DNA from: Betaproteobacteria bacterium
Lineage (GTDB): Bacteria > Pseudomonadota > Gammaproteobacteria > Burkholderiales > Burkholderiaceae_A
Assembly (NCBI GenBank): GCA_028139135.1
Contig: JAOINB010000005.1
Coordinates: 1 to 64,000, forward strand
Direction: 5' to 3'
Length of the DNA stretch: 64,000 bases
Positions 2 through 15,914 of this stretch are shown here, in pieces (position 1 is the stretch's first letter; each line of letters begins with the position of its first letter). A program made the translations under genes and the position numbers. The notes under the pieces were generated by a model. That model was not told the DNA's origin. It did no database searches and saw only the letters and a program-made list of their open reading frames with translations.

Positions 2-820
2 ATGAAAACTTTCGAAAACAGTTTCAGTGGGATTGTGAAAAAGGTAGATGCTGGAGAAATTTTTTTTAGAAGATTAAAAGGTGTAATTGATCCGGAAGAA
101 AAAAGGAAAATAATTGGCGCGGTCTTTGTCGAAATTTTTGAAAGCGAGTCAAGGAAGTTTACTGACGTAACATGGCTTGCACAAGGGACAATTTACCCCG
201 ATATTATTGAGTCAGCTGGTGTAGAAAGTGCTAGCGCCACAAAAAAAATAAAAAGTCACCATAATGTCGGTGGTTTACCTGATAAGTTAGCATTAAAATT
301 ACTCGAGCCAGTTAAGTCATTGTTCAAAGATGAGGTTAGACAATTAGGTGTTGAACTTGGTTTAAGAAATGATCTTGTCAATCGTCATCCTTTTCCTGGA
401 CCTGGATTGGGAATACGGGTAATAGGGGAGGTAACGAGTGAAAAAATAGCCATTCTTCAAAAGGCAGATGAAATACTTTTAGGGTTGTTAAAGACCCAAA
501 TTATTGGGAAAGAGGATTTTAACAAAGGTTTTACCAAGGAGGATGATATTGGAAAAAGTTGGTACGAAATAACTGCACAGGCATTTTGTGTATTTTTACC
601 TTTGAAAACAGTTGGTGTTAAGGGTGATGACAGAAGTTATGACTGGGTCATTGCAATACGCATCGTAAACTCAACAGATTTCATGACAGCAAATGCGACG
701 AGGTTGCCATTTGAGTTAATAGAATTAATTTCCTCCGAAATAATCAACAAGGTGAGCGATGTGAGTAGGGTGGTGCTAGATATTTCTAATAAACCACCAG
801 CTACCATTGAGTGGGAGTGA
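2..820 (+). CDS. guaA: GMP synthase (glutamine-hydrolysing), C-terminal part
   Basis: GMP synthase converts XMP to GMP with glutamine-derived ammonia and ATP, the last step of GMP synthesis. Only the last 272 residues are inside the window; the usual length is about 520, so the amidotransferase domain and the start of the ATP-pyrophosphatase domain lie to the left. The motifs [14 protein letters not shown] and HPFPGPGLG and the C-terminal PPATIEWE are typical of the family. The last codons coincide with the attachment site of the adjoining island, and the coding sequence is kept intact by the inserted copy. Confidence 0.97.
803..820 (+). other. Putative left attachment site (attL) in the guaA 3' end
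   Basis: The sequence accattgagtgggagtga encodes TIEWE-stop and is matched at 15897-15914 by actatcgagtgggagtag, which encodes the same residues and a stop. The exact shared core is gagtgggagt (809-818). An integrase gene begins about 150 bp to the right. Integration into the guaA 3' end is a known insertion strategy for genomic islands. The exact crossover point is inferred. Confidence 0.75.
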
Positions 821-860
821 GTAACAGTATTTAAACTATTGATTTAATTACGTTTTATTT

Positions 861-941: not shown

Positions 942-966
942 TCGAACCATTATTGTGTTTTCGTAG

Positions 967-2319
967 TTGCACGAGAGTCTTTTAAAGAAAAATATGGTCA
1001 TAAGCAGAACTAAATCGAGATTAAAAGATTTTAGAAAGAACAATAGAAAACCAGAGAAGAGAAAACCAAGAAACCAAAAGGTAACAGAGAGTTACGCTTA
1101 CTTCGATGGCAGATATAAAATATTCAGGACTGCTATTTCTAATCAGGTTTATCACTTTCATACCTACCTCAGGAACGAGAAAAAGACATTCCGCAGATCG
1201 TTGCAAACAACAGATTTAAAAGAAGCAGAGAAACGTGCGGAAACTATGTATTTTGACGTTCAATCACAAAGTAACAGCGGCAAAAGAATCTTCTCATTAA
1301 GTGCTAGGGAGTTAGCAGAAAAGTATATAGAGCATGAACAAAAACGATTAAATAACGATTTAATTAGTATTGGTCGTTTTAGAAATATCGAAGCACATTT
1401 AAAGCACTATTTAAGATTTGTTCACACTACAACCTCTATTGCTAATATAGATCCAAAATTCTTCAATGATTATTTAGGGCATAGAAAGAAAATTAAAAAA
1501 GATGTTCGTTTAACAACCATAAATAATGAATTAACAACAATCAAGAAGATGTACGAGTTTGCAAGAGAAGAAAAATATGTACCGCCTGATTACTTCATTA
1601 AATATGAAAAATTTAAAATTGATAAGAAGGCAGAGAGTAGGGATGCTTTTGAAATCCCCGAGTACGAAATTCTGATTAGTTACTCGAAACATTTTCACAA
1701 GTATGCAAAAAACGAGGAAGATGAATATTATTGTAAGTTAATGCATCTGTTCATATTGTTGATGTCCAATCTGGGAATGCGCTTTGGGGAATTACATAAT
1801 CTGCAATATGAAGATATTAAATTTATTAAGAATATCGTGCAAATCACAATTAGGAAAGAAAAGACAAAAGTAAGAAGAGAAAGAGTAATATTAGCGAACG
1901 AAAAATGTGCTGAGTATTTAAAAAGGGTTAGGAAAATATCAAAGTTCACATCAAGAACGAGTTATATATTTTCAAGTTATAGAAAAGATATAATCTGCGA
2001 CAAATCAAACTTATATCGTTGTTATCAAAGACTGATCGAGAGAATATCACAAAAGAAAACCAGTGCTGAATTTGACGTAACAAAGACATTTTATTGCCTG
2101 AGGCATTTCTTTATCACTATACGTTTATTGCAAAATGTAAATACATATAAATTAGCAAGGTACTGTGGTACAAGTCTTAAGGAAATACAGATGACTTACG
2201 ATGGTATGACTTCCCTAGAAGCATCAAAAGAAATATTAAAAAGTCAGCACAGTATCAAACGCTTTGGTGATTTTAATGAGTATTTTGATTACAAGTCAAA
2301 AAGTGTTGAGTTAAAATAA
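967..2319 (+). CDS. Tyrosine recombinase / phage-type integrase
   Basis: This is the site-specific integrase of the island, 450 residues from a TTG start; an in-frame ATG at 994 would give 441. A basic N-terminus and a SAM-like core-binding region (about residues 110-200) precede the catalytic domain. MRFGELHNL (Arg near 272), LRHFFITIR (HxxR near 379) and MTYDGM (probable Tyr nucleophile near 410) match the integrase signature, with GTSLKEIQMTY in place of the common LGH box, as in one integrase subgroup. It sits directly beside attL, pointing into the island. Confidence 0.92.
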   Translation: MHESLLKKNMVISRTKSRLKDFRKNNRKPEKRKPRNQKVTESYAYFDGRYKIFRTAISNQVYHFHTYLRNEKKTFRRSLQTTDLKEAEKRAETMYFDVQSQSNSGKRIFSLSARELAEKYIEHEQKRLNNDLISIGRFRNIEAHLKHYLRFVHTTTSIANIDPKFFNDYLGHRKKIKKDVRLTTINNELTTIKKMYEFAREEKYVPPDYFIKYEKFKIDKKAESRDAFEIPEYEILISYSKHFHKYAKNEEDEYYCKLMHLFILLMSNLGMRFGELHNLQYEDIKFIKNIVQITIRKEKTKVRRERVILANEKCAEYLKRVRKISKFTSRTSYIFSSYRKDIICDKSNLYRCYQRLIERISQKKTSAEFDVTKTFYCLRHFFITIRLLQNVNTYKLARYCGTSLKEIQMTYDGMTSLEASKEILKSQHSIKRFGDFNEYFDYKSKSVELK

Positions 2320-2370
2320 AAAAATTACAAGTTATGCTAAAAAAATTACAGTTGTGCTCAGTAGGTCAAT

Positions 2371-2565: not shown

Positions 2566-2594
2566 TTGATTGAATATACTTTGGGTATAAAACT

Positions 2595-2804
2595 ATGAAA
2601 TTTGACAAATACAGACTAGAAGAAGAATCCTTACTTAGCGCAGATGATCCGGAGGAATGGAGAGTGGTCGCTATTCCAGGAAAACATGGTAATAGCGGAG
2701 TGATAAAAAAGGGAGACACTTTCAGAGCAATGTATTGCAAAAAAGACAATGATTGCCAAATGATAAAAATTTATTTTGATCAAACAATAAAAAAAAATGC
2801 TTAA
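2595..2804 (+). CDS. Small hypothetical protein
   Basis: A 69-residue ORF with an ATG start, 29 bp after the preceding small ORF. It contains DDPEEWRVVAIPGKHGNSG and a lysine-rich tail. No family is recognised. Its size and position suggest an accessory or regulatory gene of the island, but nothing in the sequence fixes a function. Confidence 0.45.
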   Translation: MKFDKYRLEEESLLSADDPEEWRVVAIPGKHGNSGVIKKGDTFRAMYCKKDNDCQMIKIYFDQTIKKNA

Positions 2805-3159
2805 CACTCATTCTGAACCGATATCAATCTGATTTATTTTTATGTTTTTCATAACTAAATTAATTTCTATTTTAAATCATATAAATTCACTCTATTCCAG
2901 TGATATTCAATTAATGATAGTTTTCTGAACATCAAAATATTCAAAAGAGTTTATTGTTGGTAGTGAGTTTAGATACGGTAGCATGTGACCCCTTTTTTGA
3001 ACACTCTCAGATCAATTTTAAATCTCAAAATTGGTAAGATGATAAAACAATAACCCCGATCACTATTATCCACGTTGCCTTAGAAACTATAAACCTAAGT
3101 ATGCTAAAAAAAATATCCTCTAAGTCAAATTTAAATTTTTTTGTCATAATTTTATATCA
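2805..3159. other. AT-rich intergenic gap without a recognised gene
   Basis: About 355 bp between two convergent gene groups. I see no convincing ORF with a ribosome binding site, no tRNA and no strong repeat. Short T-runs near 3130 could help end transcription of the reverse-strand gene that stops at 3160. Confidence 0.5.
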
Positions 3160-3921: not shown

Positions 3922-3937
3922 AACAGAATCATAGCAA

Positions 3938-3957
3938 AATGTTCACAATTGAACATT
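3938..3957. promoter_or_regulatory. Perfect palindrome, putative operator (AATGTTCA-N4-TGAACATT)
   Basis: aatgttcacaattgaacatt is a perfect 8-bp inverted repeat with a 4-bp spacer, located just upstream of the reverse-strand gene starting at 3921. Related palindromes occur at 4110, 5729 and 7569, which suggests one dimeric DNA-binding protein. The regulator is not identified. Confidence 0.6.
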
Positions 3958-3998
3958 AAAAATAATAAAAATATATTTCCGTTTTTCACTTGAAAAAG

Positions 3999-4060
3999 AG
4001 CGGACAGATATTGTTTGATAATTTACGCTCACCGACTTTTCGTGCTCTAAATTATATAAT
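3999..4060 (+). promoter_or_regulatory. Putative promoter with 39-bp upstream block, copy 1
   Basis: A 39-bp block beginning agcggacagatattgttt (3999-4037) is nearly repeated at 5363-5401. Its last six bases, ccgact, lie exactly 17 bp before a consensus TATAAT at 4055-4060. The second copy has acgact, 17 bp and TAAAAT. The shared block plus identical spacing indicates a duplicated, probably activator- or repressor-controlled sigma70-type promoter driving the genes from 4157. Confidence 0.6.
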
Positions 4061-4109
4061 GTATATAAGAGTTGAGAAAAACTTAACTTGATTTAGCGTT
4101 CAGTTTAGT

Positions 4110-4125
4110 TGTTCCAAATTGAACA
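4110..4125. promoter_or_regulatory. Putative operator (TGTTCC-N4-TGAACA)
   Basis: tgttccaaattgaaca differs from the palindrome at 5729 at one half-site position. It lies about 50 bp downstream of the TATAAT at 4055 and 31 bp before the ATG at 4157, a position suited to repression. The ORF-track start at 4109 would translate through it, which argues for the ATG. Confidence 0.5.
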
Positions 4126-4156
4126 TTTTATTAACTTTTTTATAGTGAGATTAATC

Positions 4157-4918
4157 ATGAAAAAGAAAACTAAAGTAGTAGAAGTAAATACGCAAGATGT
4201 TAAGACTAACCCTGTAGCGAATGAAGTTGCAAAATCAATTAAGAAAGTGAAAGATATGAGTTTAGTTGAGAGATTCAATCATTCACACGATAGACTTGTT
4301 ACAAGACTTTCACCTGACGAGATTGCACAATCAGATGAACTTGTTGATAAGTATCATCAATTTGCTAAGAAATTCGCTTTAACTGTAATTGAATTAGCAG
4401 TGTTTATGCGTGAGACAAAACAGAAGTTTGTTAATAAAGAGATTTCTGAAAATGTCTTCAAAGTATTTTGTCACAAAATACAAATCAAATCTGATAGTTC
4501 TACTTATAGAAAATACGAGTCTATTGCTAATAATGCTGAGAAGTTGAGATTGTATCAAGATAGATTGCCTGATAACTATACAACTATCTACAATATTTGC
4601 ACGTTAAACAAAGACGAGTATTCCGCTTTTGAGCATGAAATACTCAAGTCAGATGTGCCTATTACGAACAGTGTTGTGAATAAGTTTAGATTTGGTAGGC
4701 AAGAGAAACTCATCGCTCAAACAAACGCATCTATTCAAATTGAGAAGAACAAGAACGATATGACTGTTTTTGATATAACTTTTTTAAAAGAAGATTATGT
4801 TGCAAATCAAGAAAAAATAGATGGCATAATTCATGAGTTGAAAACTCGTTATCGTGCTGACGTTGTTTCAAATACTGAGTTTCAAACTGCTGAAACCTTG
4901 CAAAAGAAAGTAGCATAA
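4157..4918 (+). CDS. Hypothetical protein of the island, first gene of a two-gene operon
   Basis: I choose the ATG at 4157 (253 residues) over the TTG at 4109 because the promoter and operator lie upstream of it. The N-terminus is lysine-rich and the middle is largely helical with no membrane segment. The segment FALTVIELAVFMRETKQKF followed by a Tyr/Ser-rich stretch gives no family I can name. The stop overlaps the start of the next gene (taATG), so the two are probably translationally coupled. Confidence 0.7.
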   Translation: MKKKTKVVEVNTQDVKTNPVANEVAKSIKKVKDMSLVERFNHSHDRLVTRLSPDEIAQSDELVDKYHQFAKKFALTVIELAVFMRETKQKFVNKEISENVFKVFCHKIQIKSDSSTYRKYESIANNAEKLRLYQDRLPDNYTTIYNICTLNKDEYSAFEHEILKSDVPITNSVVNKFRFGRQEKLIAQTNASIQIEKNKNDMTVFDITFLKEDYVANQEKIDGIIHELKTRYRADVVSNTEFQTAETLQKKVA

Positions 4919-5319
4919 TGTCTGTGTTAGAAACATACTTATCAGACATAGAAGCAAAAGAGCGTCTAACAGTTAATGAAAGAGATGCTCTGCTCTTTCT
5001 ATTTTGCAAAGATGAGTCTAACGATTTAACAATTCAAGCGAAGTTAGCGAGTTCTGAAATTGCCTTTTATAGACTTAGTGAATCCTCTCAACAAAATTTA
5101 TTTGAACTAGTAGTAGATAAAGACTTTGTTCAGAGTATCACAGCAAAAATAGAGCAAGACATAAACGAACAACTAGAGTTTAGAAATCGTTCACAGCATA
5201 TCATTGATAAAGCATTAAGTGAAATAAAGAAAGACCCATATGCAAAACATTTGTCTGATATTTCGCTAGATTTAGATGTTCGTGTTATCAATGAACCTGC
5301 TCATCTAGATATCATCTAA
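4918..5319 (+). CDS. Hypothetical protein of the island, second gene of the operon
   Basis: A 133-residue acidic, mainly helical protein (SVLETYLSDIEAKERLTVN at the start). Its ATG shares a base with the preceding stop codon. A clear intrinsic terminator follows 11 bp after the stop. No family is recognised. A basic upstream partner and an acidic downstream partner made from one transcript may interact, but this is inference. Confidence 0.7.
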   Translation: MSVLETYLSDIEAKERLTVNERDALLFLFCKDESNDLTIQAKLASSEIAFYRLSESSQQNLFELVVDKDFVQSITAKIEQDINEQLEFRNRSQHIIDKALSEIKKDPYAKHLSDISLDLDVRVINEPAHLDII

Positions 5320-5330
5320 AACCTCCCTTT

Positions 5331-5355
5331 AAGATGCCACGTGCATCTTCTTTTT
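5331..5355 (+). terminator. Intrinsic terminator
   Basis: aagatgc-cacgt-gcatctt is a perfect 7-bp stem with a 5-base loop, followed by cttttt. It ends the operon 4157-5319. The stem core is the same as in the terminator at 5701. Confidence 0.85.
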
Positions 5356-5362
5356 ACCTATT

Positions 5363-5424
5363 AGCGGACAGATATTGTTTATCAATCTACGCTCAACGAC
5401 TATTCATAGCATAACGACTAAAAT
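5363..5424 (+). promoter_or_regulatory. Putative promoter with 39-bp upstream block, copy 2
   Basis: agcggacagatattgttt followed by a related stretch ending in caacgact (5363-5401) matches the block at 3999-4037 at most positions. The final acgact is 17 bp from TAAAAT at 5419-5424. It lies directly upstream of the small membrane-protein gene starting at 5460. Confidence 0.6.
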
Positions 5425-5459
5425 AGAAGTAACAGTTTAGGAAAAAAGGAGTGTTTAAA

Positions 5460-5654
5460 ATGGTTAGAAATAATAGAAGATTATTAAGAAATAATAGTAG
5501 AAGTATTGATGAGTATTTTATTGAGAAGTTAGAAAGTGCTGAGTTGAAGTTTAGTAGTGAAAGATGGTTTTGGATTAAACTAAGTGGCATTTCTGTATTG
5601 TTGAATATTGCTCTTGTCTATTTTCAATTCTTTGCTGAGAGAGTTGTTTTATAA
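5460..5654 (+). CDS. Small single-pass membrane protein
   Basis: The ATG at 5460 follows a GGAG (aaaaaaggagtgtttaaa) and gives 64 residues; the in-frame GTG at 5451 overlaps that ribosome binding site. The N-terminus is Asn/Arg-rich (RNNRRLLRNNSRS) and the C-terminus has one hydrophobic segment (GISVLLNIALVYFQFF). It is driven by promoter copy 2 and followed by a terminator at 5701. Function unknown; a short amphipathic or toxin-like protein is possible but unsupported. Confidence 0.6.
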   Translation: MVRNNRRLLRNNSRSIDEYFIEKLESAELKFSSERWFWIKLSGISVLLNIALVYFQFFAERVVL

Positions 5655-5700
5655 AATGTTCATAATTTGAATAAATCAAACCTTCATTAAGAAGACCCGA

Positions 5701-5725
5701 AGATGCCTAGAGCATCTTTTTTTTT
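5701..5725 (+). terminator. Intrinsic terminator
   Basis: agatgc-ctaga-gcatct forms a 6-bp stem with a 5-base loop, followed by a run of eight T. The stem core repeats that of the terminator at 5331, so the promoter-gene-terminator unit appears to be duplicated in form. Confidence 0.85.
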
Positions 5726-5728
5726 GCC

Positions 5729-5744
5729 TGTTCAATTGTGAACA
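5729..5744. promoter_or_regulatory. Putative operator (TGTTCA-N4-TGAACA)
   Basis: tgttcaattgtgaaca is a perfect 6-bp inverted repeat with a 4-bp spacer. A TTGACC hexamer, possibly a -35 element, begins 2 bp later. It precedes the gene pair starting at 5849. Confidence 0.55.
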
Positions 5745-5848
5745 CTTGACCCAACAAAACACTATTTTGCTCAATTTTAAAGATTACTAAATATTAGTGT
5801 GATGAAGAAATCATCACATATTCATTCAATTACTTTAAGGAGCAGAGT

Positions 5849-6016
5849 ATGAAAACCTACGCAGAAAATTTTGAAGTCAAATATAACGAGGTTCAAGAGA
5901 TTGATGCTTATAATGAAAGCGAAGTGCATAAGATTCTACGAGAGCGTTATGGGAATGCGAGTGAGATAGTTGTTCATTATGCAGATGAACTTCCTTCATA
6001 TGCTTATGACGAGTAA
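5849..6016 (+). CDS. Small hypothetical protein upstream of the HUH gene
   Basis: This 55-residue ORF is absent from the ORF track. It starts with ATG behind a strong taaggag ribosome binding site (5837-5843). The product is acidic (MKTYAENFEVKYNEVQEID). Its end overlaps the start region of the next gene, ATG 6006 lying before its stop at 6014-6016, which suggests translational coupling. No family is recognised. Confidence 0.6.
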   Translation: MKTYAENFEVKYNEVQEIDAYNESEVHKILRERYGNASEIVVHYADELPSYAYDE

Positions 6017-6518
6017 CTTTGAAATCACAAAGTGGGCGAGTGACATTTTAGATGCCTCGCCCTTTACTCTCTATGATATCGTATTTGAAATCAATACACC
6101 TATTGTTGATGGGTTCAATAAGAAAATAAGTGCATTTCACCCACTAGCGGTATGTAAAGTTTATAAAGCACTTGATTGGACAATTGATACGATTAGAAGA
6201 GTACATAAAGATAAAGAAAAACATTTGAAGTTTATAGCGTGGATTGGGGGCAATACAGAGCAAGGCAAACACCCTCACATTCACTCAATACTAGAGATGC
6301 CATATGATGATATTGTCTCTTATGAGATTTTGATACACAAGCATTTTCAAAGATACATTGAAAAAACCTTGAAACAATCTGTTATGACTAATGTAACCAT
6401 AAGAGAAATTGATAATGTTAAAGGGTATAGTTTCTATTGCAGTAGAAATGAAGGCGAGTATTCACTCAAAGGCGATGAGAAAATACTCATAGAAAAATTG
6501 TCTTCAATTGAGATATGA
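6006..6518 (+). CDS. HUH-motif Rep/relaxase-like protein
   Basis: HUH endonucleases nick single-stranded DNA at origins through a Tyr nucleophile and a metal held by His-hydrophobic-His. Here GKHPHIHSILEMP (about residues 87-99) matches the HUH strand, and Tyr residues in YSFYCSR (near 141-145) could be nucleophiles. The ATG at 6006 gives 170 residues and overlaps the preceding small ORF; upstream in-frame ATGs at 6000 and earlier are less likely. Its size resembles small rolling-circle Rep or inovirus Gp2-like proteins. The family is inferred from the motif only, and no helicase domain is present. Confidence 0.5.
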   Translation: MTSNFEITKWASDILDASPFTLYDIVFEINTPIVDGFNKKISAFHPLAVCKVYKALDWTIDTIRRVHKDKEKHLKFIAWIGGNTEQGKHPHIHSILEMPYDDIVSYEILIHKHFQRYIEKTLKQSVMTNVTIREIDNVKGYSFYCSRNEGEYSLKGDEKILIEKLSSIEI

Positions 6519-6593
6519 AAGAAGTTGCAATATGCACTAATCGTAACGCCATACTGATGAACTGTTAGTTGTAACGGAAGTGACTATTATTCT

Positions 6594-6645
6594 TAGATAG
6601 AATAGAAATCTATCTAGGTCTACTAATGCTAATTTCAGTTAGTAG
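6594..6645. repeat. Two adjacent inverted repeats between the HUH and RHH genes
   Basis: tagataga-N7-tctatcta (6594-6616) and ctactaa-N12-ttagtag (6620-6645) are perfect inverted repeats lying back to back in a 245-bp non-coding gap. Neither is followed by a T-run, so they are poor terminators. Their position next to an HUH gene makes a nick or origin hairpin plausible. Confidence 0.55.
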
Positions 6646-6763
6646 AACATTCTTTTACTTTCCTCTCCTCTCCACAAGTTTACTAAATAGTAATGATAAT
6701 GTGATTACTTCAATCGCACTATTGGGACAATCTCAATTTAACGATTACGAGAAAGAGAAGAAA

Positions 6764-6937
6764 ATGCAGACAACATTACCTCAAATGAATAAGAACTTAC
6801 ATATTCGTATTGACGAAGATACAGAAACAAAACTAATTGCTGTGGCACTTAAGCACAGCCCAACAAAATCTAATCTATTAAGACATCTTATTAGAGCATC
6901 AGTTAGAGATAACAGATTAGATACTATATTTGCATAG
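6764..6937 (+). CDS. Small ribbon-helix-helix-like DNA-binding protein
   Basis: I choose the ATG at 6764 (57 residues) behind gagaaagagaag; the longer ORF from 6626 runs back through inverted-repeat DNA. LHIRIDEDTETKLIAVALK followed by SPTKSNLLRHLIRASV has the strand-helix-helix pattern of CopG/Arc-type repressors and plasmid partition or copy-control proteins. It may be the regulator of the TGTTCA palindromes or of the HUH gene, which is inference. The stop is followed after 2 bp by the next start. Confidence 0.55.
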   Translation: MQTTLPQMNKNLHIRIDEDTETKLIAVALKHSPTKSNLLRHLIRASVRDNRLDTIFA

Positions 6938-6939
6938 TT

Positions 6940-7302
6940 ATGAATCCATTTAGATTGCTGAGTAAGCAACGAAAAAGAATAAGAAAGTTGAATGCAAGAA
7001 CTTTAAAAGAGTTTCGTAATGAAGAGAAAGTATTTAATCCAAAACGAGAAACACAAGATTATCTATTAGTAACAATTGATAAGGTCGCTGTATTAATACC
7101 AAATGATATGCGAATGAAGTTTAATGATGCCAAGAAGATTATTCACAAGCAGATTAAAAAGATTAAAAAAGTAAGTGATGAATATATGGAAGATTATTTT
7201 GTATTCAATCCCAAGACCCGAACTCTCAAAAAGTATGAACACGATTTATATATTGATGATAAGGAAATAGACAGATTAGCGAGGTCAAATGCACTACAGT
7301 AA
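6940..7302 (+). CDS. Basic hypothetical protein
   Basis: A 120-residue Lys/Arg-rich protein starting with ATG 2 bp after the RHH-like gene, so almost certainly co-transcribed with it. The N-terminus reads LLSKQRKRIRKLNART and the middle contains a short hydrophobic strand (YLLVTIDKVAVLIP). No family is recognised. Confidence 0.6.
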   Translation: MNPFRLLSKQRKRIRKLNARTLKEFRNEEKVFNPKRETQDYLLVTIDKVAVLIPNDMRMKFNDAKKIIHKQIKKIKKVSDEYMEDYFVFNPKTRTLKKYEHDLYIDDKEIDRLARSNALQ

Positions 7303-7423
7303 TATATCGCTCCTCCTGACATTCTGCCCAGAGATATGCGAATCTACACCTTATCTCCCAGAAGAGATTAGAACACTCTCCTTATGCGTCCTAAAGACCT
7401 CTGTACACACTTTCTAAAGACAT

Positions 7424-7567
7424 ATGAATAAGAAACCACTATTTGAGTTAGAACTGATAAAAGATTTCAAACCTCAAGTCACTCAGAAGATGCTTCAACA
7501 AATATCTAGTGAACTGAAAAAACTGATACTCAAGCACGATATAAAGATTACTGTTACGAAAAAGTGA
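7424..7567 (+). CDS. Very small hypothetical protein
   Basis: A 47-residue ORF not in the ORF track, starting with ATG (MNKKPLFELELIKDFK) and ending just before the palindrome at 7569. It is helical and basic with no recognised family. There is no strong ribosome binding site, so the call is tentative. Confidence 0.35.
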   Translation: MNKKPLFELELIKDFKPQVTQKMLQQISSELKKLILKHDIKITVTKK

Positions 7568-7568
7568 T

Positions 7569-7587
7569 TTGTTCACATCATGAACAA
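7569..7587. promoter_or_regulatory. Putative operator (TTGTTCA-N5-TGAACAA)
   Basis: ttgttcacatcatgaacaa is a perfect 7-bp inverted repeat with a 5-bp spacer. It is a further member of the TGTTCA/TGAACA set, here at the end of the AT-rich gene block rather than in front of a gene. Confidence 0.45.
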
Positions 7588-7595
7588 TCGTGTGG

Positions 7596-7650
7596 CGAGA
7601 GAGGGTTTTAGGTACTCCTCCAACCAGATTGAATGAATGACCCTCTCTCG
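7596..7650. terminator. Long inverted repeat, probable bidirectional terminator
   Basis: cgagagagggt (7596-7606) and accctctctcg (7640-7650) are a perfect 11-bp inverted repeat with a 33-base loop, followed by ttgtttt. It lies between convergent transcription units, a forward small gene and the reverse serine recombinase. It could also be a recombination-site remnant. Confidence 0.5.
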
Positions 7651-7655
7651 TTGTT

Positions 7656-8252
7656 TTATGAGAGAGATGTCCTATTCATACAGGAATAAACACTTCCAAC
7701 CCCAATCTTCAACTCCTTTGCTATTTTACGAATACCCATGCCTTTATTACGAAGTAGTTTCACAGATTGAATCAGGGAAGAATTTATATTAGACTTACGA
7801 CCGAGTTTAACCCCTTTTCGCTTTGCATTTGCAAGACCAGATATAGTTCTCTCACGAATTAAATCTCGTTCGTACTGACTGATACTGTTAATAATATTAA
7901 AGAATAATTCGCCAACAATAGTGGAAGTATCTATATTTTGATTTACGCAATAAAGATGAATGTTCTTTGATTTAAGAATGCCAGTTATCTCGCACATATG
8001 ACGAACAGAACGACCCAAGCGAGAAAGTTCAAGCACCATTACAGTATCAAACTTACCTGCAAGTCCATCTTGAATCATTTTGTTTAGAGAGGGGCGTTCT
8101 TTTATGTTGCCCGACACTCCTTCATCCGCATATTCTTCAACAACTGTGAAATCATTACGAATGGCGATTTCTTGCAATTCTTCTAATTGTCTAGCGACAC
8201 ACTGTGTTTTCTGGGAAACTCGTGTATATATGGCAACTTTTCTCATTTCCAA
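7656..8252 (-). CDS. Serine recombinase (resolvase/invertase family)
   Basis: This is a small serine recombinase of 198 residues, the usual resolvase length. The catalytic domain begins KVAIYTRVSQ (Ser near 13) and contains LELSRLGRS and YERDLIRERT. A C-terminal helix-turn-helix (IRKIAKELKIGVGSVYSCM) follows. MEMRK may really start at the second Met. It is divergent from the adjoining restriction genes and may have brought in or resolved that cassette, which is inference. Confidence 0.93.
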   Translation of the reverse strand: MEMRKVAIYTRVSQKTQCVARQLEELQEIAIRNDFTVVEEYADEGVSGNIKERPSLNKMIQDGLAGKFDTVMVLELSRLGRSVRHMCEITGILKSKNIHLYCVNQNIDTSTIVGELFFNIINSISQYERDLIRERTISGLANAKRKGVKLGRKSNINSSLIQSVKLLRNKGMGIRKIAKELKIGVGSVYSCMNRTSLS

Positions 8253-8407
8253 CCCCGTTCAGTTAATGGTTCGGAGGATATCAAATGGAGGAGGGAAGAC
8301 AAGTGAAAAAAGGTATATTTCTGTAGTAATATTTGGATTAGTAGCACAAAAGATAAGCAGAGTAGGGAAACAAATTTTATAGATTAGAGAAACAATCTAA
8401 GATAAAA

Positions 8408-10678
8408 ATGGCAAGATTATCAGATAATCAAATTAGAGATATAACTCGTTTATTAGAGGAAGGAAAACCTCTTCCAGACAAATATAGATTTTTACTGTTT
8501 GGTGACGATAGAGAAGTTGAATTAGTTTGGAATGGAAAGTCTCATGACGTGACCAATATTGTTTTGCCATTTCAAACTATTGAGCATGTTGATGAACCAC
8601 GCTCAGAAAGGGATGTTAAAGCGCAACCTGATCTCTTTGATCTTGCAACAGGGCGTCAATTGAAAGGTTGGACAAACAAACTGATTTGGGGTGACAACAA
8701 ATTCATCTTATCCTCTTTAAGGAATGGTCCTTTGCGGGAAGAGATCGAGAAAAATGGGGGCATCAAACTGATCTATATCGATCCGCCTTTCGATGTTGGT
8801 GCGGATTTCACTATGGATGTTCAAATAGGGGAGGAGACTATAGAGAAGGAACCTAATGTTCTTGAGGAAGTCGCCTACAGAGATACTTGGGCAAAAGGCG
8901 AAGATTCGTTCCTTTCAATGATTCACGAGAGAGTGGTTCTTATGAAAGACTTGCTCTCTTCTTGCGGATCGATATATGTGCATTGTGATTGGAGGTTAGT
9001 AGGAGTTCTAAGATCCGTGATGGACGAAGTGTTTGGGAAAGAAAATTTTCTGAATCAAATTGTGTGGAAAAGGAGAGGAGGCAATGCTTCTACTAAGTCA
9101 AACAAACTAGAAAATGCAGTAGACTATTTACTTCATTATCAGAAATCAGAATCTTTCGTTCAAAATTTTCAATACACGAACGCTGGATCCGAAGATTACA
9201 TTGCTAACAATTTTACACACTCAGACCCAGATGGACGTCGGTATCGCCTGAGTCCGTTAAACAATCCAGCGCCCAGACCAACTCTACGTTATGAATTTAT
9301 GGGTCATAAACCGCACCCAAATGGTTGGAGTGTATCAAAACCTGTTTTGCAAAAGATGTTTGAAGAAAACAAGTTGGTTTTTCCCAAGAAAAAGGGTGGT
9401 CGAGTTAATCGAAAACAGTATCTTGATGAATGGAAGGGTTATGCCATTGACAGTTTATGGACGGATATACCTCCAGTGGCACCTTCAGGGAAGGAAAGGT
9501 TAGATTACCCAACCCAAAAACCTATTGCGTTAATCGAGCGAATTTTAAAAAGTTCAAGTAACCCTGGTGACCTCGTTTGCGATTTTTTTGTCGGTTCAGG
9601 CACCACGGCAGCGGTAGCAGAGAAACTAGGTCGAAAATGGATTTGTTCGGATCTAGGTAAATTTTCTATACATACTGCTAGAAAGCGTCTTATTAGTGTA
9701 CAGAGAGAACTGAAAAAAGAAAACAATAACTATCGGGCATTTGAAGTTCTAAATCTTGGTAAATATGAACGTGAATTCTTTGTTTCTGGACTTTCGGAAC
9801 TTGATGAAAAATCAGCGCAACATGTTAAAAATAATCGCGAACTGGCATTCAACGCACTAATCCTGCAGGCATATCAAGCAGAATCTGTCTCTGGTTTCCG
9901 TACTTTTCGAGGTAAAAAAAATAATCGTTTGATTGCGATTGGTCCCGTGAATATGCCTGTCTCTCGACTTTTTGCTGAACAGGTCGTTACAGAATGCGTT
10001 GAAAAAGGTATTACTAAAGCGGACTTACTTGCCTTTGAATTTGAAATGGGTCTTTTCCCAAGCATTCAGGATGAGGCATCAAATAAAGGCGTCGATCTCG
10101 TCCTTAAACAGATTCCAAAAGAGGTCTTTGATAAACGTGCGGTCGACAGAGGGGAAGCAAAATTTCACGATGTTGCGTATATCGACGTTAAAGCACATAT
10201 CGAGGGTAACTCTATAGCGATCGAATTAACGAATTATTCTGTCTTTTATACACAGGGTATTACTTCTTTAACAGAGGAAAGTCTCAAAAGGGGCAAGAGT
10301 CTGGTGGTGGTAGAAAATGGACAAGTTCTAAAAATCAGTAAGGACAAGGATGGAATAACTAATCCTAGAGAAATCCTCACAAAACAATGGAGCGATTGGG
10401 TAGATTATTGGTCAATCGACTTTGACTATGAATCTAAGAAAGAAATTATCTATGAACGCGATCCAAATACGGGAGAAGATATTCCAAAATGGACGGGTTC
10501 ATATATTTTTGAAAACGAGTGGCAGTCTTTTAGGACGCGTCAAGATCGTTCATTAGAACTTAAATCCGTTCCTTTCGAGACTGCTTCTGGGCGAAGAAAA
10601 ATCGCGGTGAAAGTCGTGGATATCTTCGGAAATGATACGATGAAAGTTATCGATATGACGATAGGAGGGAAGATCTAA
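8408..10678 (+). CDS. mod: Type III restriction-modification methyltransferase (Mod)
   Basis: The Mod subunit recognises the asymmetric target and methylates adenine. Motif IV appears as IYIDPPFDVG (near residue 125) and the AdoMet motif I as DFFVGSGTT (near 393), the beta-class order with the target-recognition region between them. At 756 residues it is within the range of long type III Mod proteins. The stop overlaps the res start (taATGg), so the pair is translationally coupled. Base composition looks richer in G+C than the genes on either side. Confidence 0.93.
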   Translation: MARLSDNQIRDITRLLEEGKPLPDKYRFLLFGDDREVELVWNGKSHDVTNIVLPFQTIEHVDEPRSERDVKAQPDLFDLATGRQLKGWTNKLIWGDNKFILSSLRNGPLREEIEKNGGIKLIYIDPPFDVGADFTMDVQIGEETIEKEPNVLEEVAYRDTWAKGEDSFLSMIHERVVLMKDLLSSCGSIYVHCDWRLVGVLRSVMDEVFGKENFLNQIVWKRRGGNASTKSNKLENAVDYLLHYQKSESFVQNFQYTNAGSEDYIANNFTHSDPDGRRYRLSPLNNPAPRPTLRYEFMGHKPHPNGWSVSKPVLQKMFEENKLVFPKKKGGRVNRKQYLDEWKGYAIDSLWTDIPPVAPSGKERLDYPTQKPIALIERILKSSSNPGDLVCDFFVGSGTTAAVAEKLGRKWICSDLGKFSIHTARKRLISVQRELKKENNNYRAFEVLNLGKYEREFFVSGLSELDEKSAQHVKNNRELAFNALILQAYQAESVSGFRTFRGKKNNRLIAIGPVNMPVSRLFAEQVVTECVEKGITKADLLAFEFEMGLFPSIQDEASNKGVDLVLKQIPKEVFDKRAVDRGEAKFHDVAYIDVKAHIEGNSIAIELTNYSVFYTQGITSLTEESLKRGKSLVVVENGQVLKISKDKDGITNPREILTKQWSDWVDYWSIDFDYESKKEIIYERDPNTGEDIPKWTGSYIFENEWQSFRTRQDRSLELKSVPFETASGRRKIAVKVVDIFGNDTMKVIDMTIGGKI

Positions 10679-13389
10679 TGGCAATCCATAAAGATTTTCC
10701 ATCGTCGCCACATGAGATTCTAAAACCCGAAGTTCGATGGTTCCCCGCTGACGAGACGTTAAGGGACACATCTTATGAAAAGTTAATGCCCCCTCTCGTC
10801 CACGAACTAAGACAAAAAGTTTTTGAGTGGCGAGAAAACGGATATCCGGAAATAAGTGATACCGGGCGAACGCTTTTAAACTGGTGGTTCAAGTCGCCGC
10901 ACCCAATCCCCCACGCGGATGGAACGATTGGTAATTTTAAATATTACTTTGCTCAACGTGAATCAGTAGAGACAGTTATTTACCTGCATGAGTTTGTGAA
11001 AGTAAAAGACAAGCATGATTTGCTGCGTTTCGATACCAGGGGCGTCGTGCCTTCTAAACTTATCGAAGAGACATGGCGGAGATATGTCGTCAAGATGGCG
11101 ACAGGTAGCGGCAAAACCAAAACTATTAGTCTCTTATTAGCATGGTCATATTTTCATAAAAAATATGAAGAGTACTCTGACCTTTCAACAAATTTTTTGG
11201 TTATCGCACCAAACATTATTGTTTTAGACAGATTAAGGACTGACTTTGATGGATTGCGAATATTTTCTGAAGATCCTGTGATTCCAGATAATGGTCTGGA
11301 TGGACGTAATTGGCGGACGGATTTCCAACTCACTCTCCACATTCAAGACGAAGTAGGACCTTTAAACCCGAACGGAAATATTTTTCTCACAAATATACAC
11401 CGTGTCTATGATGACAAGACTCCCGCGCCCACGGCGGATGATGAAAACTCAATGGATTATTTCCTGGGAAATAAACCCAAGGGAAAGACAACCGATTCGG
11501 TTGTAGATCTGGGACGAATCATCAGAGATATCGATGGATTGGTTGTAATCAATGACGAAGCACATCATATTCATGATAGTAGGTTGACTTGGTTTAAATC
11601 GATTGGCGATATCAACAATAAACTGAAACAAAAGGGATCTGAATTAGCGTTACAAATAGATGTTACGGCAACACCAAAGCATAACAACGGTGCAATCTTT
11701 GTTCAAACCATTGCTGATTATCCCCTAGTTGAAGCAATCACTCAGAATGTTGTTAAACACCCTGTTCTTCCGGATGCACCTAGTCGTACGAAACTTACTG
11801 AGAAGCAAAGTTCTGTCTACACCGAAAAATACCAAGACTATATCGATCTCGGAGTTGCCGAATGGAAAAAAGTTTACGCGGAGCATGAAAAATTAGGCAA
11901 GAAAGCAATCCTATTTTTAATGACAGATGAAACGAAGAATTGTGATGCCGTTGCGAAGTATTTAGAGACAACTTACTCTGAATTCAAAGATGCTGTTTTA
12001 ACGATCCACACTAATCCCCGGGGAGAGGTCGATGAAAAGGCATCATCGAAAGCGAAAAAAGAGGAGTTGGAAATATTAAGGAGGCAATCTAATGAAATTG
12101 ACACTTGGAAGAGTCCGTATAAAGCAGTAGTTTCTGTTTTGATGTTAAAGGAAGGATGGGATGTCCGTAACGTTACCACCATTGTTGGACTTCGTGCCTA
12201 TACTGCCACATCAAATATACTTCCAGAACAAACTCTAGGAAGAGGTTTACGGCGTATGTATCCGAGTCAAGACGCGGAAGAATATGTTAGCGTGGTGGGT
12301 ACTGAAGCATTCATGAACTTTGTTGAATCAATACAAAGTGAAGGCATTGAATTAGAGAAAAGACCAATGGGAGATGGGAGTAAACCCGTTGCTCCAATGA
12401 TTATTGAGGTGGACGAGAAAGGAGAGAAAGATCTCGATAATCTGGATATCGAGATACCAGTCCTGACTCCGCGTGTAGTTAGAGAATATAAAAATTTAAA
12501 CGACCTAGATCTGGATGCATTAAAGTTTAAAACTGCCGTATATCGGGAATATTCAGAGGAGGAAAAAAGAGAAATCGTTTTTCGCGATATTACCACAGAT
12601 GAAGTCACCCACACGACCCTCTTAGAAGGGGCGGTCAGTACTGACTATCGAAGCGTTATAGGTTATTTTGCGCAAACAATTTTAAAGGACCTTAGGTTGT
12701 ATGCTGCATATGATCTTTTGTATCCAAAAATTCGAGAGTTTGTTCAGGATAAATTGTTTGGGAGGTTGGTTGACCTCGATGACCCAAATACTTTGAGAAA
12801 TTTGAGTGAACCAGTTGTCTCACGAACGATTTTTGAGACGTTTAAAATTGCAATTAATAACTTAACTATTCGCGATACAGGAAACGCGGAGATTCGAGAC
12901 AGTATTAAAATTAGGAATATGCGCCCCTTCGTAGTAAAAGATCAAAAAAATATTACGGCAAAGAAATCGGTATTCAACAAGATTGTAGGTGATAGCGTAC
13001 TAGAACTCCGATTTTCCCAATTTTTGGAACGGGTTCCAGATGTGATCTCTTATGCGAAGAATTATACCCAATTAAATTTTAAGATTGACTACATTGATGC
13101 GGTGGGGAATATAGCAAATTATATCCCAGATTTTTTGGTGAAGGTTTCGGATAGGAAAACATATGTTGTAGAAACCAAGGGACTAGAAGATTTAGATGAT
13201 CCTCTTAAGATAAAAAGACTCCGCCAATGGTGTACGGATGTAAACACATCACACTCGGATGTTGAATTTGATTTTATTTATGTTGATCAGGAGAAGTTTG
13301 ATAGATTGACCGGTGAATCTCAAGGATCAAAAAATGAATTGGCAACGTTTTCTGATCTTGTTAAAAGATTCACTGCTTACAAGGAATGA
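10678..13389 (+). CDS. res: Type III restriction enzyme, Res subunit
   Basis: Res is the ATP-dependent translocating and cleaving subunit. The 903-residue protein has Walker A (MATGSGKTKT, near 139), a DEAD-like box (INDEAHH, near 290) and a late motif including TLGRGLRRMYP. A C-terminal PD-(D/E)XK nuclease is visible as YIPDFLVKV and YVVETKG (near 815-833). All required parts look intact. It overlaps mod by one base and the GIY-YIG gene by four (ATGA). Confidence 0.94.
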   Translation: MAIHKDFPSSPHEILKPEVRWFPADETLRDTSYEKLMPPLVHELRQKVFEWRENGYPEISDTGRTLLNWWFKSPHPIPHADGTIGNFKYYFAQRESVETVIYLHEFVKVKDKHDLLRFDTRGVVPSKLIEETWRRYVVKMATGSGKTKTISLLLAWSYFHKKYEEYSDLSTNFLVIAPNIIVLDRLRTDFDGLRIFSEDPVIPDNGLDGRNWRTDFQLTLHIQDEVGPLNPNGNIFLTNIHRVYDDKTPAPTADDENSMDYFLGNKPKGKTTDSVVDLGRIIRDIDGLVVINDEAHHIHDSRLTWFKSIGDINNKLKQKGSELALQIDVTATPKHNNGAIFVQTIADYPLVEAITQNVVKHPVLPDAPSRTKLTEKQSSVYTEKYQDYIDLGVAEWKKVYAEHEKLGKKAILFLMTDETKNCDAVAKYLETTYSEFKDAVLTIHTNPRGEVDEKASSKAKKEELEILRRQSNEIDTWKSPYKAVVSVLMLKEGWDVRNVTTIVGLRAYTATSNILPEQTLGRGLRRMYPSQDAEEYVSVVGTEAFMNFVESIQSEGIELEKRPMGDGSKPVAPMIIEVDEKGEKDLDNLDIEIPVLTPRVVREYKNLNDLDLDALKFKTAVYREYSEEEKREIVFRDITTDEVTHTTLLEGAVSTDYRSVIGYFAQTILKDLRLYAAYDLLYPKIREFVQDKLFGRLVDLDDPNTLRNLSEPVVSRTIFETFKIAINNLTIRDTGNAEIRDSIKIRNMRPFVVKDQKNITAKKSVFNKIVGDSVLELRFSQFLERVPDVISYAKNYTQLNFKIDYIDAVGNIANYIPDFLVKVSDRKTYVVETKGLEDLDDPLKIKRLRQWCTDVNTSHSDVEFDFIYVDQEKFDRLTGESQGSKNELATFSDLVKRFTAYKE

Positions 13390-13985
13390 GAAAATCGATT
13401 GAGACAAACATAGAAGGTATCTATCAAGACAGATCTTTAAGTACTAATGAATTAGCACAATGCCTAGCACCTGATATGTATAGTGAAATTGTCTCTTTAT
13501 TAAAATCTGATGATTATAAAAATAAAATTGAACATATAAGTATGTTTTTTTGTGAATTTCTTCGAAGACAGGAAGGAAAAGGTAGGTCTAAATATTTTAC
13601 AAAAACTGAAAAATTACTTGAGGAGAATAACATTGTGCCTATTAATTGGTATTTAAGGGCACTAGATACTGTTTCAAAAATAAGAGTAAAGAAAAAGAAA
13701 GACATCGAAAGAAATCATAATGTGTACTGTATATTAGTCGATGGTTTTGCGAAATCGTCTCCATACGGAGTATATGTAGGCGAGACTTCTAAGGCACCAG
13801 AGCAGAGATTTGGTGAGCATAAGGAAGGAGGGAGGTTAGCAGCAAGAAGAAACAAGAGGTTCATATGTCTTCTTCCTGGGTTGTATCAACGATTTAATCC
13901 TTTATCAAGAGAAGAGGCGAAGGAATTAGAACCGGTAATATGTAAGAAATTATTAGAGAATGATGTGAGAGCGTTTTATGGATAA
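13386..13985 (+). CDS. GIY-YIG nuclease-domain protein linked to type III RM
   Basis: The start overlaps the res stop as ATGA, so it is co-translated with res. The 199-residue protein has an unrecognised helical N-terminal half. Its C-terminal half reads VYCILVDG, PYGVYVGETSKAPEQRFGEHK (near 113-140), which fits the GIY-YIG fold with the catalytic Arg in QRF. A late Glu (AKELEPVICKK) could supply the metal ligand. GIY-YIG proteins are not standard type III subunits, so this is an accessory or fused system. The domain call is from motif only. Confidence 0.6.
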   Translation: MRKSIETNIEGIYQDRSLSTNELAQCLAPDMYSEIVSLLKSDDYKNKIEHISMFFCEFLRRQEGKGRSKYFTKTEKLLEENNIVPINWYLRALDTVSKIRVKKKKDIERNHNVYCILVDGFAKSSPYGVYVGETSKAPEQRFGEHKEGGRLAARRNKRFICLLPGLYQRFNPLSREEAKELEPVICKKLLENDVRAFYG

Positions 13986-14013
13986 CTATTTTTATATATA
14001 TTTTTTAGTATAG

Positions 14014-14883
14014 ATGAATATTTCAAAAGATGACTATATTTTAAGAGCATTCTCAAAAATAAAACATAAGAAATGGGAACTATATATTGTTACCAGAATT
14101 ATTCATTTATTGGATGATCCAGAAATTGAATTTGTATGTCAACAGTTGATCAAGACATCAAATAATAAGCGTTATCTCGCAGATATTTGTTTCCCAAATT
14201 TAAGTTTATATGTTGAGATAGACGAGTTACAGCATAGTAAATTAGAGCACTCAGAGTCCGATAAAGATAGAATGAAAGAAATTTTAGATGCGTCTAACTT
14301 TCTTGAAAAGCGCATCCAAATTTTTACTGCTCAAAGAGAAATAAAAAGTTTAGGAGAAATTAATTCGGAGATTTGGAAAATTGTAAAATTTATCAAAAAA
14401 CGAAAAGAAGAATTGGTATTAAAAAAATTCTTTCAACCATGGAATTTTGATAAAAAATATGATCCAGAAAAGTATATTAGTTTAGGATACTTGGACTCTA
14501 GAAAGAATGTTTCCTTCTTATATCATCGTGATGCATTACGATGCTTTGGATATAAAGGTGGTCATTTTCAAAAAGCGGTATGGGAAATTAAAGGCACAAA
14601 AAAGGGCGTATGGTTTCCTAAGTTATATGCGAATAAAGAATGGAATAATAGTTTAAGTGACGATCTAGGTACTATTGAGATGAGACGAATAGATAATGGT
14701 AAACTTTGGACTATTGGGAATCATGAGTGGTTAGTATTTGCCCATTACAAAGATTTTCTCGGGAGAATTGTTTATAAATTTCTAGGAGAGTTTCACTCGT
14801 CTAGAGAAGACTCAACCATGTTTTGTCATATCTTTTTAAGGAAGAAAACAAAAATTAATCTTAAGGAATATCAAACGCTCTAA
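14014..14883 (+). CDS. Putative modification-dependent endonuclease, PvuRts1I/AbaSI-like
   Basis: A 289-residue protein whose length and layout resemble PvuRts1I/AbaSI enzymes, which cut DNA carrying hydroxymethylated or glucosylated cytosine. The N-terminal region DYILRAFSKIKHKKWELYIV and ADICFPNLSLYVEIDELQH (about 55-73) looks like a Vsr-type PD-(D/E)XK nuclease with conserved acidic residues and His. The C-terminal half, rich in aromatic residues, would be the SRA-like reader. The family assignment rests on recalled resemblance and has not been checked by alignment. It starts 28 bp after the GIY-YIG gene. Confidence 0.55.
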   Translation: MNISKDDYILRAFSKIKHKKWELYIVTRIIHLLDDPEIEFVCQQLIKTSNNKRYLADICFPNLSLYVEIDELQHSKLEHSESDKDRMKEILDASNFLEKRIQIFTAQREIKSLGEINSEIWKIVKFIKKRKEELVLKKFFQPWNFDKKYDPEKYISLGYLDSRKNVSFLYHRDALRCFGYKGGHFQKAVWEIKGTKKGVWFPKLYANKEWNNSLSDDLGTIEMRRIDNGKLWTIGNHEWLVFAHYKDFLGRIVYKFLGEFHSSREDSTMFCHIFLRKKTKINLKEYQTL

Positions 14884-14900
14884 TATGATTTAATAGAACA

Positions 14901-15833
14901 ATGAATATATTAAGAATAGTACTCGGAGTACGGCACAGATTTTTTAACGAATGTTTCGAAGGTGGATACATTGGGGTAGATTTTGGCATGGATGTGGATC
15001 TTACTAATCATCTATCTGATAGTGTTGAAGAGTTTCGTCGCTTCTTTAAACCAAAGTATTTGGAAAAACATCCAAATGCTGCGTCCATAAAAGGAGGGTT
15101 AGCGTGCAGTTTTACATACACGGTAACAAAATTATTAGGAATTGGGGATTTGGTTTTATCGCCTGATGGTACCGGGAAATATCATGTAGGTGAAATTCAA
15201 AGTGAATATTATTATGTTGCCAGTGAGGAGAGCAGTTTTCTAAGACACAGGCGAAAAATTAAGTGGTTAAATAAATCAATAAATCGAATTGATATGAGTG
15301 AACCACTAAGGAACTCTGCAGGTTCAATTGCTACTATTTGTAATTTATCAAATTACTCAAAAGAAATTCTCCAATTAATTGCTGTTGAAAACACACGTCC
15401 AGTTGCGAGTGAAGACCCAGATGTTGAAAGTCCGAGTGAATTTGCTTTGGAAGAGCATTTGGAGGATTTTCTTGTAAAAAACTGGGATCAAACTGAATTA
15501 TCTGAAAAATATGAAATCTATGAAGATGAAGAATTTAATGGTAGGCAATTTAGTACGGATACTGGTCATATAGACATACTCGCGGTCAGCAGGGATAAAA
15601 AAGAATTTTTAGTTATTGAACTTAAAAAGGGAAGGGCAAGTGACAGAGTAGTAGGGCAAATACAGAGATATATGGGTTATATACAAGAAGAGTTTGCCAC
15701 AGAAGGACAAGTCGTAAAAGGGGCAATTATCGCTTTTGAGGAGGACAAAGGAATTAAAAGAGCATTAAGCGTTACTAGGAATATAGAATTTTATAAGTAT
15801 CAAATTAAATTTAATTTAACAAAGGTTAGTTAA
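14901..15833 (+). CDS. NucS/DUF91-like PD-(D/E)XK endonuclease
   Basis: This 310-residue protein has a C-terminal nuclease domain: GHIDILAV (near 221), FLVIELKKG (near 239) and VVGQIQRYMGYI, the D...ELK...Q pattern of NucS/DUF91 and related restriction nucleases. The N-terminal half (IGDLVLSPDGTGKYHVGEI, then LRHRRKIKWL) resembles small beta-barrel DNA-reading domains found in front of Mrr-like nucleases. It is the last gene before the right arm repeats and attR. A defence role is inferred from domains and context. Confidence 0.65.
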   Translation: MNILRIVLGVRHRFFNECFEGGYIGVDFGMDVDLTNHLSDSVEEFRRFFKPKYLEKHPNAASIKGGLACSFTYTVTKLLGIGDLVLSPDGTGKYHVGEIQSEYYYVASEESSFLRHRRKIKWLNKSINRIDMSEPLRNSAGSIATICNLSNYSKEILQLIAVENTRPVASEDPDVESPSEFALEEHLEDFLVKNWDQTELSEKYEIYEDEEFNGRQFSTDTGHIDILAVSRDKKEFLVIELKKGRASDRVVGQIQRYMGYIQEEFATEGQVVKGAIIAFEEDKGIKRALSVTRNIEFYKYQIKFNLTKVS

Positions 15834-15836
15834 AAG

Positions 15837-15855
15837 TTGCAAACTACATGCAAAC
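15837..15855 (+). repeat. TTGCAAAC repeats, right-end integrase arm-type sites
   Basis: ttgcaaac at 15837-15844 and atgcaaac at 15848-15855 are spaced 11 bp apart. They have the same orientation and helical phase as the four copies at the left end, 42 bp inside attR. Presence at both ends supports an integrase-binding role. Confidence 0.6.
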
Positions 15856-15896
15856 CATATTTTTTACTATTTAAAACAATAGGTTACAAATTAATT

Positions 15897-15914
15897 ACTA
15901 TCGAGTGGGAGTAG
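15897..15914 (+). other. Putative right attachment site (attR), guaA terminal codons
   Basis: actatcgagtgggagtag encodes T-I-E-W-E-stop, the same last residues as GuaA but with different synonymous codons and stop. It matches attL in 14 of 18 bases, with an exact core gagtgggagt (15903-15912). This appears to be the original host guaA terminus displaced by the island, or a relic of an earlier one. Confidence 0.75.

What the first reader, a model, noticed from the sequence alone, without database searches (positions are those of the whole stretch)
13386..15833. Three extra putative nucleases appended to a type III restriction-modification pair
Downstream of mod-res, a GIY-YIG gene overlaps res by ATGA, followed at short spacing by a PvuRts1I/AbaSI-like gene and a NucS/DUF91-like gene. 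A standard type III system needs only Mod and Res. A co-directional row of three unrelated nuclease folds suggests either a composite defence system against phages with modified and unmodified DNA, or a cassette hot spot.
Basis: partly seen in the sequence, partly recalled or inferred. Interest (0 to 1): 0.75.

Follow-up and report, generated by a model that had tools for sequence, protein, structure and literature searches.

The report
Mobile island stacking four DNA-cutting defences
A mobile DNA element inserted at the end of a housekeeping gene carries one enzyme pair that probably cuts unmarked virus DNA, followed by two nucleases predicted to cut chemically disguised virus DNA and one small nuclease of unknown target; layering of this kind is known, but this exact set has been seen only once.

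Summary
A mod-res pair (8408-13389) is followed, co-directionally, by a GIY-YIG gene (ATGA overlap with res), a PvuRts1I homologue (28-bp gap) and a gene with a NucS-type nuclease domain (17-bp gap). Two corrections. The folds are not three unrelated ones: PvuRts1I and the NucS-type domain are both PD-(D/E)XK. And the third gene is not a NucS-like repair enzyme: its N-terminal domain models as an EVE/YTH-like (PUA-type) modified-base reader, so it looks like a modification-dependent (type IV) nuclease. The row is cargo at the right end of an integrative element (about 809-15912) inserted in the 3' end of guaA, with a tyrosine integrase, a 10-bp att repeat matching the known GAGTGGGA guaA site, and an empty site in a relative. 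Full co-occurrence is not conserved: five mod-res relatives lack the nucleases; the EVE/YTH-nuclease is widespread, about half of sampled loci lying in type I RM operons; PvuRts1I sits next to it in one other genome, with a non-sister partner. Best reading: a layered restriction cassette (unmodified DNA cut by type III, modified DNA by two type IV nucleases) assembled from interchangeable modules. Experimental precedents exist (BREX+BrxU; TgvAB inside a type I operon).

The parts
809..818 (+). attL core GAGTGGGAGT, at the guaA stop codon
   Evidence: The 10-mer occurs only at 809 and 15903 in the 64-kb window; GAGTGGGA is the published guaA attB of GIsul2 (PMC9376610)
861..941 (+). four TTGCAAAC repeats, putative integrase arm sites, left end
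   Evidence: TGCAAAC occurs 10 times in 64 kb: 862, 873, 923, 935 at the left end; 15838, 15849 at the right end
967..2319 (+). tyrosine integrase, 450 aa
   Evidence: Pfam Phage_integrase 2.5e-10; PHROG integrase 2.5e-29
7656..8252 (-). small serine recombinase/resolvase, 198 aa, divergent from mod
   Evidence: Pfam Resolvase 2.9e-40
8408..10678 (+). Mod: beta-class N6/N4 DNA methyltransferase of type III kind, 756 aa
   Evidence: N6_N4_Mtase 1.8e-40, PADLOC MTase_III 4.8e-103; DPPF at 125 before FVGSG at 394
10678..13389 (+). Res: helicase-nuclease subunit, 903 aa
   Evidence: ResIII 1.3e-16; GSGKT 143, DEAH 293, PD 817 ... ETK 832
13386..13985 (+). GIY-YIG nuclease, 199 aa, with about 110 aa of unidentified N-terminal region
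   Evidence: Pfam GIY-YIG 3.2e-4; Y114, Y130, G132, R141, H145, E182 shared with small GIY-YIG proteins; no full-length relative found
14014..14883 (+). PvuRts1I/AbaSI family nuclease, PD-(D/E)XK plus SRA, 289 aa
   Evidence: 39% identity to PvuRts1I over full length, E 5e-62; K19, E22, D57, E68, E71 and pocket W200, P202, W210, N212 kept
14901..15833 (+). EVE/YTH-like reader (1-165) fused to NucS-type PD-(D/E)XK nuclease (178-310); PADLOC PDC-S02
   Evidence: PDC-S02 4.5e-127; D225, E240, K242 invariant in 58 homologues; model pLDDT 87; Foldseek NucS 6e-8, VcaM4I 2e-5, YTHDF2 4e-5
15837..15855 (+). two (T)TGCAAAC repeats, putative integrase arm sites, right end
15903..15912 (+). attR core GAGTGGGAGT; right end of the element, 69 bp after the last nuclease gene
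   Evidence: P = 5e-5 for the core in the 290-bp flank by shuffling

Best explanation
The five genes are the defence cargo of an integrative element at the guaA 3' end and act as a layered restriction cassette. Mod marks host DNA and Res cuts DNA lacking the mark. Phages that evade this with modified bases meet two modification-dependent nucleases: the PvuRts1I homologue (hydroxymethyl- or glucosyl-cytosine, or a related base) and the EVE/YTH-NucS protein (another modified base, identity unknown). The GIY-YIG protein, whose start overlaps the end of res, is probably a further restriction nuclease or Res accessory. The layers are separate modules brought together by horizontal transfer, not one obligate machine. 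Shown: gene order, domains, active-site residues, element boundaries, modular distribution. Inferred: expression, specificities, phage restriction, cooperation.
For: Domains and catalytic residues. EVE/YTH-like reader fold on the last protein. Element ends, integrase and empty site. Of 77 EVE/YTH-NucS loci with a called ORF, 37 have type I RM genes within 5 kb on the same strand, 30 as immediate neighbour, 1 has a mod-res pair. PvuRts1I beside EVE/YTH-NucS in a SAR86 genome (L035), with a NucS partner not sister to the window's (p-AU 0.002), so the neighbourhood arose more than once or one partner was exchanged. Experimental precedents: BREX plus BrxU (PMC8565348) and type IV TgvAB embedded in a type I RM operon (PMC11411939).
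Against: The full set was found once only. Five mod-res relatives carry no such nucleases. PvuRts1I homologues elsewhere are solitary. Base composition differs between mod-res (40% GC) and the nucleases (30-35%). No expression or phenotype data. The pocket glutamate essential in PvuRts1I (Glu228) aligns with Met in the window protein, Glu one position earlier, so its base specificity may differ. Sequence-profile support for the EVE relation is weak (hhalign probability 5%); it rests on the fold comparison.
Confidence: 0.62

Rival explanations
1. Passive accretion: the genes sit together only because mobile-element ends collect defence genes; each works alone and the order has no functional meaning.
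For: No second copy of the full set; mod-res alone in five relatives; PvuRts1I usually solitary; different base composition of the blocks; cargo at the edge of an integrative element.
Against: Tight co-directional spacing with an ATGA overlap; recurrence of the PvuRts1I plus EVE/YTH-NucS neighbourhood with non-sister partners; strong general association of EVE/YTH-NucS with RM operons.
Confidence: 0.3
2. The EVE/YTH-NucS protein serves the RM system directly, for example by sensing the methylation state or failure of the adjacent methyltransferase, rather than foreign modified phage DNA.
For: About half of sampled homologues sit inside type I RM operons across many phyla; YTH domains read N6-methyladenine, and type I HsdM belongs to an N-6 DNA methylase family.
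Against: The other half of loci show no detected RM neighbour, including two directly downstream of glmS; reading the host's own m6A would be self-destructive unless context-dependent; reader specificity is unknown.
Confidence: 0.15
3. The GIY-YIG gene is a homing or mobility nuclease of the element, unrelated to restriction.
For: GIY-YIG is a common homing-endonuclease fold (general knowledge); no relative of full length was found beside any RM system.
Against: It overlaps res by ATGA, as expected of translational coupling, and does not interrupt a gene.
Confidence: 0.25
4. The last gene is a NucS/EndoMS-type mismatch-repair nuclease carried by chance.
For: C-terminal domain matches NucS_C (1.4e-7) and NucS structures.
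Against: N-terminal region matches EVE/YTH readers by fold; NCBIfam NucS equivalogs score far below cut-off (40.8 of 216 bits); RM-operon context of homologues.
Confidence: 0.04

Closest known systems
BREX plus BrxU defence island of plasmid pEFER (PMC8565348)
   Same: A host-marking system against unmodified DNA next to a modification-dependent type IV enzyme on one mobile island, giving complementary protection
   Different: BREX and GmrSD-family BrxU there; here a type III mod-res, PvuRts1I, EVE/YTH-NucS and GIY-YIG
TgvAB within the type I RM operon of Vibrio cholerae VPI-2 (PMC11411939)
   Same: Type IV genes embedded in or next to RM genes on an integrated island
   Different: GmrSD-type enzyme in a type I operon; here two other type IV families after a type III pair
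PvuRts1I/AbaSI family
   Same: Full-length homology (39%), PD-(D/E)XK plus SRA, catalytic residues and most pocket residues kept
   Different: Pocket Glu228 position is Met here; neighbours are RM genes, not the solitary plasmid context
EVE-PD-(D/E)XK predicted type IV enzymes (PMC7641849) and VcaM4I EVE-HNH (PMC7897488)
   Same: PUA-type reader domain fused to a nuclease domain
   Different: NucS-type nuclease half; reader about equally close to YTH by fold; not recognised by Pfam
PADLOC PDC-S02 (candidate phage defence family)
   Same: The last gene matches two PDC-S02 models over full length (4.5e-127)
GIsul2-type islands at guaA (PMC9376610)
   Same: Integration at the guaA 3' end with core GAGTGGGA and an adjacent tyrosine integrase
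   Different: Carries restriction genes instead of sulfonamide resistance

Membership tests
Type III restriction-modification (mod-res) | Beta-class methyltransferase (DPPY/F before FxGxG) next to a helicase-nuclease Res | tested here: met
   DPPF 125, FVGSG 394; GSGKT 143, DEAH 293, PD 817 / ETK 832; MTase_III 4.8e-103, REase_III 2.4e-19
Type III restriction-modification (mod-res) | Mod-Res complex that cuts only unmethylated sites | not testable with these tools
   Needs biochemistry
PvuRts1I/AbaSI | N-terminal atypical PD-(D/E)XK with Glu20, Asp57, Glu68, Glu71, Lys17 | tested here: met
   Aligned as E22, D57, E68, E71, K19
PvuRts1I/AbaSI | SRA pocket Trp205, Pro207, Trp215, Asn217, Glu228 | tested here: inconclusive
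   Four of five kept; Glu228 aligns with Met223, Glu at 222; same in the SAR86 relative
PvuRts1I/AbaSI | Cleavage of 5hmC/5ghmC DNA | not testable with these tools
   Needs biochemistry
GIY-YIG nuclease | Two Tyr motifs, Arg and Glu of the catalytic core | tested here: met
   Y114, Y130, R141, E182 invariant with four relatives; Pfam just under cut-off
NucS/EndoMS | NucS N-terminal domain plus NucS_C nuclease | tested here: not met
   Only the C-terminal half matches; N-terminal half matches EVE/YTH by fold
EVE/YTH-PD-(D/E)XK modification-dependent nuclease | PUA-type reader domain fold | tested here: met
   Foldseek: YTHDF2 E 4e-5, probability 1.00, target-normalised TM about 0.5; VcaM4I 2e-5; sequence profiles weak
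EVE/YTH-PD-(D/E)XK modification-dependent nuclease | PD-(D/E)XK residues | tested here: met
   D225, E240, K242 invariant in 58 sequences
EVE/YTH-PD-(D/E)XK modification-dependent nuclease | Binding of a modified base | not testable with these tools
   Pocket residues were not mapped; coordinates unavailable
guaA-integrating island | Integrase next to guaA, direct att repeats, empty site in a relative | tested here: met
   the G004 junction holds 1.87 kb of other sequence

The most novel reading that the evidence does not exclude
The EVE/YTH-NucS protein is a general RM companion: a modified-base-reading nuclease that, across many phyla, is inserted into type I operons (and here after a type III pair, beside PvuRts1I) as the standard answer to phages whose DNA modifications defeat the host RM system, or as a guard of the RM system's own methylation state.
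Probability: 0.35. Interest if true: 0.72.

Novelty: new variant of a known kind. Interest (0 to 1): 0.5.

Why it matters
It replaces the NucS-like label of an uncharacterised, widespread candidate defence family (PDC-S02) with a testable mechanism: a modified-base reader fused to a nuclease. About half of its sampled homologues lie in type I RM operons, which suggests that pairing modification-blocked with modification-dependent restriction is common, beyond the two studied cases. The window is a compact example on a mobile element with defined ends.

Tried and rejected
GIY-YIG full-length relatives: none in plasmids, phages, viral or genome contigs; only the C-terminal 60-70 residues match small GIY-YIG proteins of about 110 aa. 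Single-sequence AlphaFold of GIY-YIG was unusable (pLDDT 41). Single-sequence viral scans for the other two genes found nothing. NucS mismatch-repair reading rejected on the N-terminal domain. A common ancestral PvuRts1I plus EVE/YTH-NucS pair was tested on the NucS tree and rejected as a clade (p-AU 0.002). Profile search of the reader domain against solved structures gave no hit. Promoter and terminator scans were no better than shuffles.
Full report
What is there. Mod (756 aa) has the beta-class order of motifs, and Res (903 aa) has helicase motifs and a PD...ETK nuclease motif. The GIY-YIG gene overlaps the res stop by ATGA; its Pfam score is just below the cut-off, but the two tyrosines, arginine and glutamate are shared with small GIY-YIG proteins, and its codon-position GC pattern resembles that of other genes in the window. 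Its first 110 residues match nothing. The fourth gene is a clear PvuRts1I homologue (39% over full length, E 5e-62) that keeps the published catalytic residues (PMC4027163) and four of five pocket residues; the fifth, Glu228, aligns with Met both here and in the closest relative, so specificity may have shifted.

The last gene. The label NucS covers only its C-terminal half. An AlphaFold model from 58 homologues (mean pLDDT 87; pTM 0.57, so the relative placement of the two domains is uncertain) matches NucS structures and, through other hits, the EVE-HNH restriction enzyme VcaM4I (2e-5) and the YTH domain of YTHDF2 (4e-5). That the latter concern the N-terminal half is inferred from target size and domain layout; residue-level alignments were not returned. 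EVE and YTH are PUA-type readers of modified bases, and EVE-PD-(D/E)XK fusions are predicted type IV enzymes (PMC7641849). Sequence-profile comparison with EVE is weak. D225, E240 and K242 are invariant.

Mobile element. Window 2-820 is the end of guaA and 967-2319 a tyrosine integrase. The 10-mer GAGTGGGAGT occurs exactly twice in 64 kb, at the guaA stop (809) and at 15903, 69 bp after the last nuclease gene; TGCAAAC repeats cluster inside both ends. GAGTGGGA is the published guaA integration site of GIsul2. A same-genus genome (G004) has guaA and the right-hand flank about 1.87 kb apart, against 15.3 kb here. G001, 94% identical, carries the same integrase but its contig ends within it. So the nucleases are right-end cargo of an integrative element of about 15.1 kb.

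Distribution. One scan of 85,462 genomes with the EVE/YTH-NucS alignment gave 285 relatives; the best 80 were kept. Of 77 with a called ORF, 37 have type I RM genes within 5 kb on the same strand and 30 have one as immediate neighbour; one has a mod-res pair, one another large cluster. Representatives were confirmed as HsdM, HsdS, HsdR and a YgjP-like protease. One locus (L035, SAR86) has a PvuRts1I homologue, 63% identical, directly upstream of its EVE/YTH-NucS gene, with no mod or res homologue in its 20.9-kb locus and no GIY-YIG match in its genome. The NucS proteins of the window and L035 are not sisters (p-AU 0.002), while the PvuRts1I proteins are each other's closest known relatives here. 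The neighbourhood therefore formed more than once or exchanged a partner. This is one recurrence, so it is suggestive only.

Mod-res relatives (Aminobacter, Sinorhizobium medicae, G275, G183, G113; res 63-69% identical) carry none of the three nucleases in the sequence examined; the G183 mod and G113 res reading frames look broken in those assemblies. Two of them have a KilA-N gene between mod and res instead. PvuRts1I homologues on plasmids and in G665 are solitary.

Interpretation. The content fits layered restriction: type III against unmodified DNA, type IV enzymes against modified DNA. That logic is experimentally established for BREX plus BrxU and for TgvAB within a type I operon. The distribution says modular assembly on a mobile element, not an obligate five-gene machine. 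Functional cooperation, substrates and expression are inferred, not shown.

Noticed in passing
L021, L022 (SAR86), about 8152-10942: The closest EVE/YTH-NucS homologues stand alone directly downstream of glmS, a known insertion spot of Tn7-like elements (general knowledge).
   Followed up: partly
L130 10598-11425 (-), L131 5727-6542 (-): In two relatives of this mod-res pair a KilA-N domain gene lies between mod and res, suggesting that the pair accepts accessory genes at several positions.
   Followed up: partly
window 14014-14883, residues 220-223: The position of the essential PvuRts1I pocket residue Glu228 is Met in the window protein and in its SAR86 relative; altered base specificity or a one-residue alignment shift.
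   Followed up: partly
window 5970-6518: ORF with an HxH-like stretch (PHIHSILEMP) reminiscent of HUH replication or relaxase proteins; no family match.
   Followed up: no
window 7656-8252: A serine resolvase, divergent from mod, separates the element's backbone genes from the restriction cargo; it may mark an internal cargo boundary.
   Followed up: no
L005 and L145 (Acinetobacter johnsonii plasmid pAcsw19-2): A type I RM operon with an embedded EVE/YTH-NucS gene and an Abi gene is followed a few kb on by a methyltransferase-helicase pair, another stacked defence region on a plasmid.
   Followed up: no
L101 (Thioclava plasmid p2), about 4989-9297: A PvuRts1I homologue sits next to Tn7/Tn5053-like transposition genes (Mu-type transposase, TniB, TniQ).
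   Followed up: no
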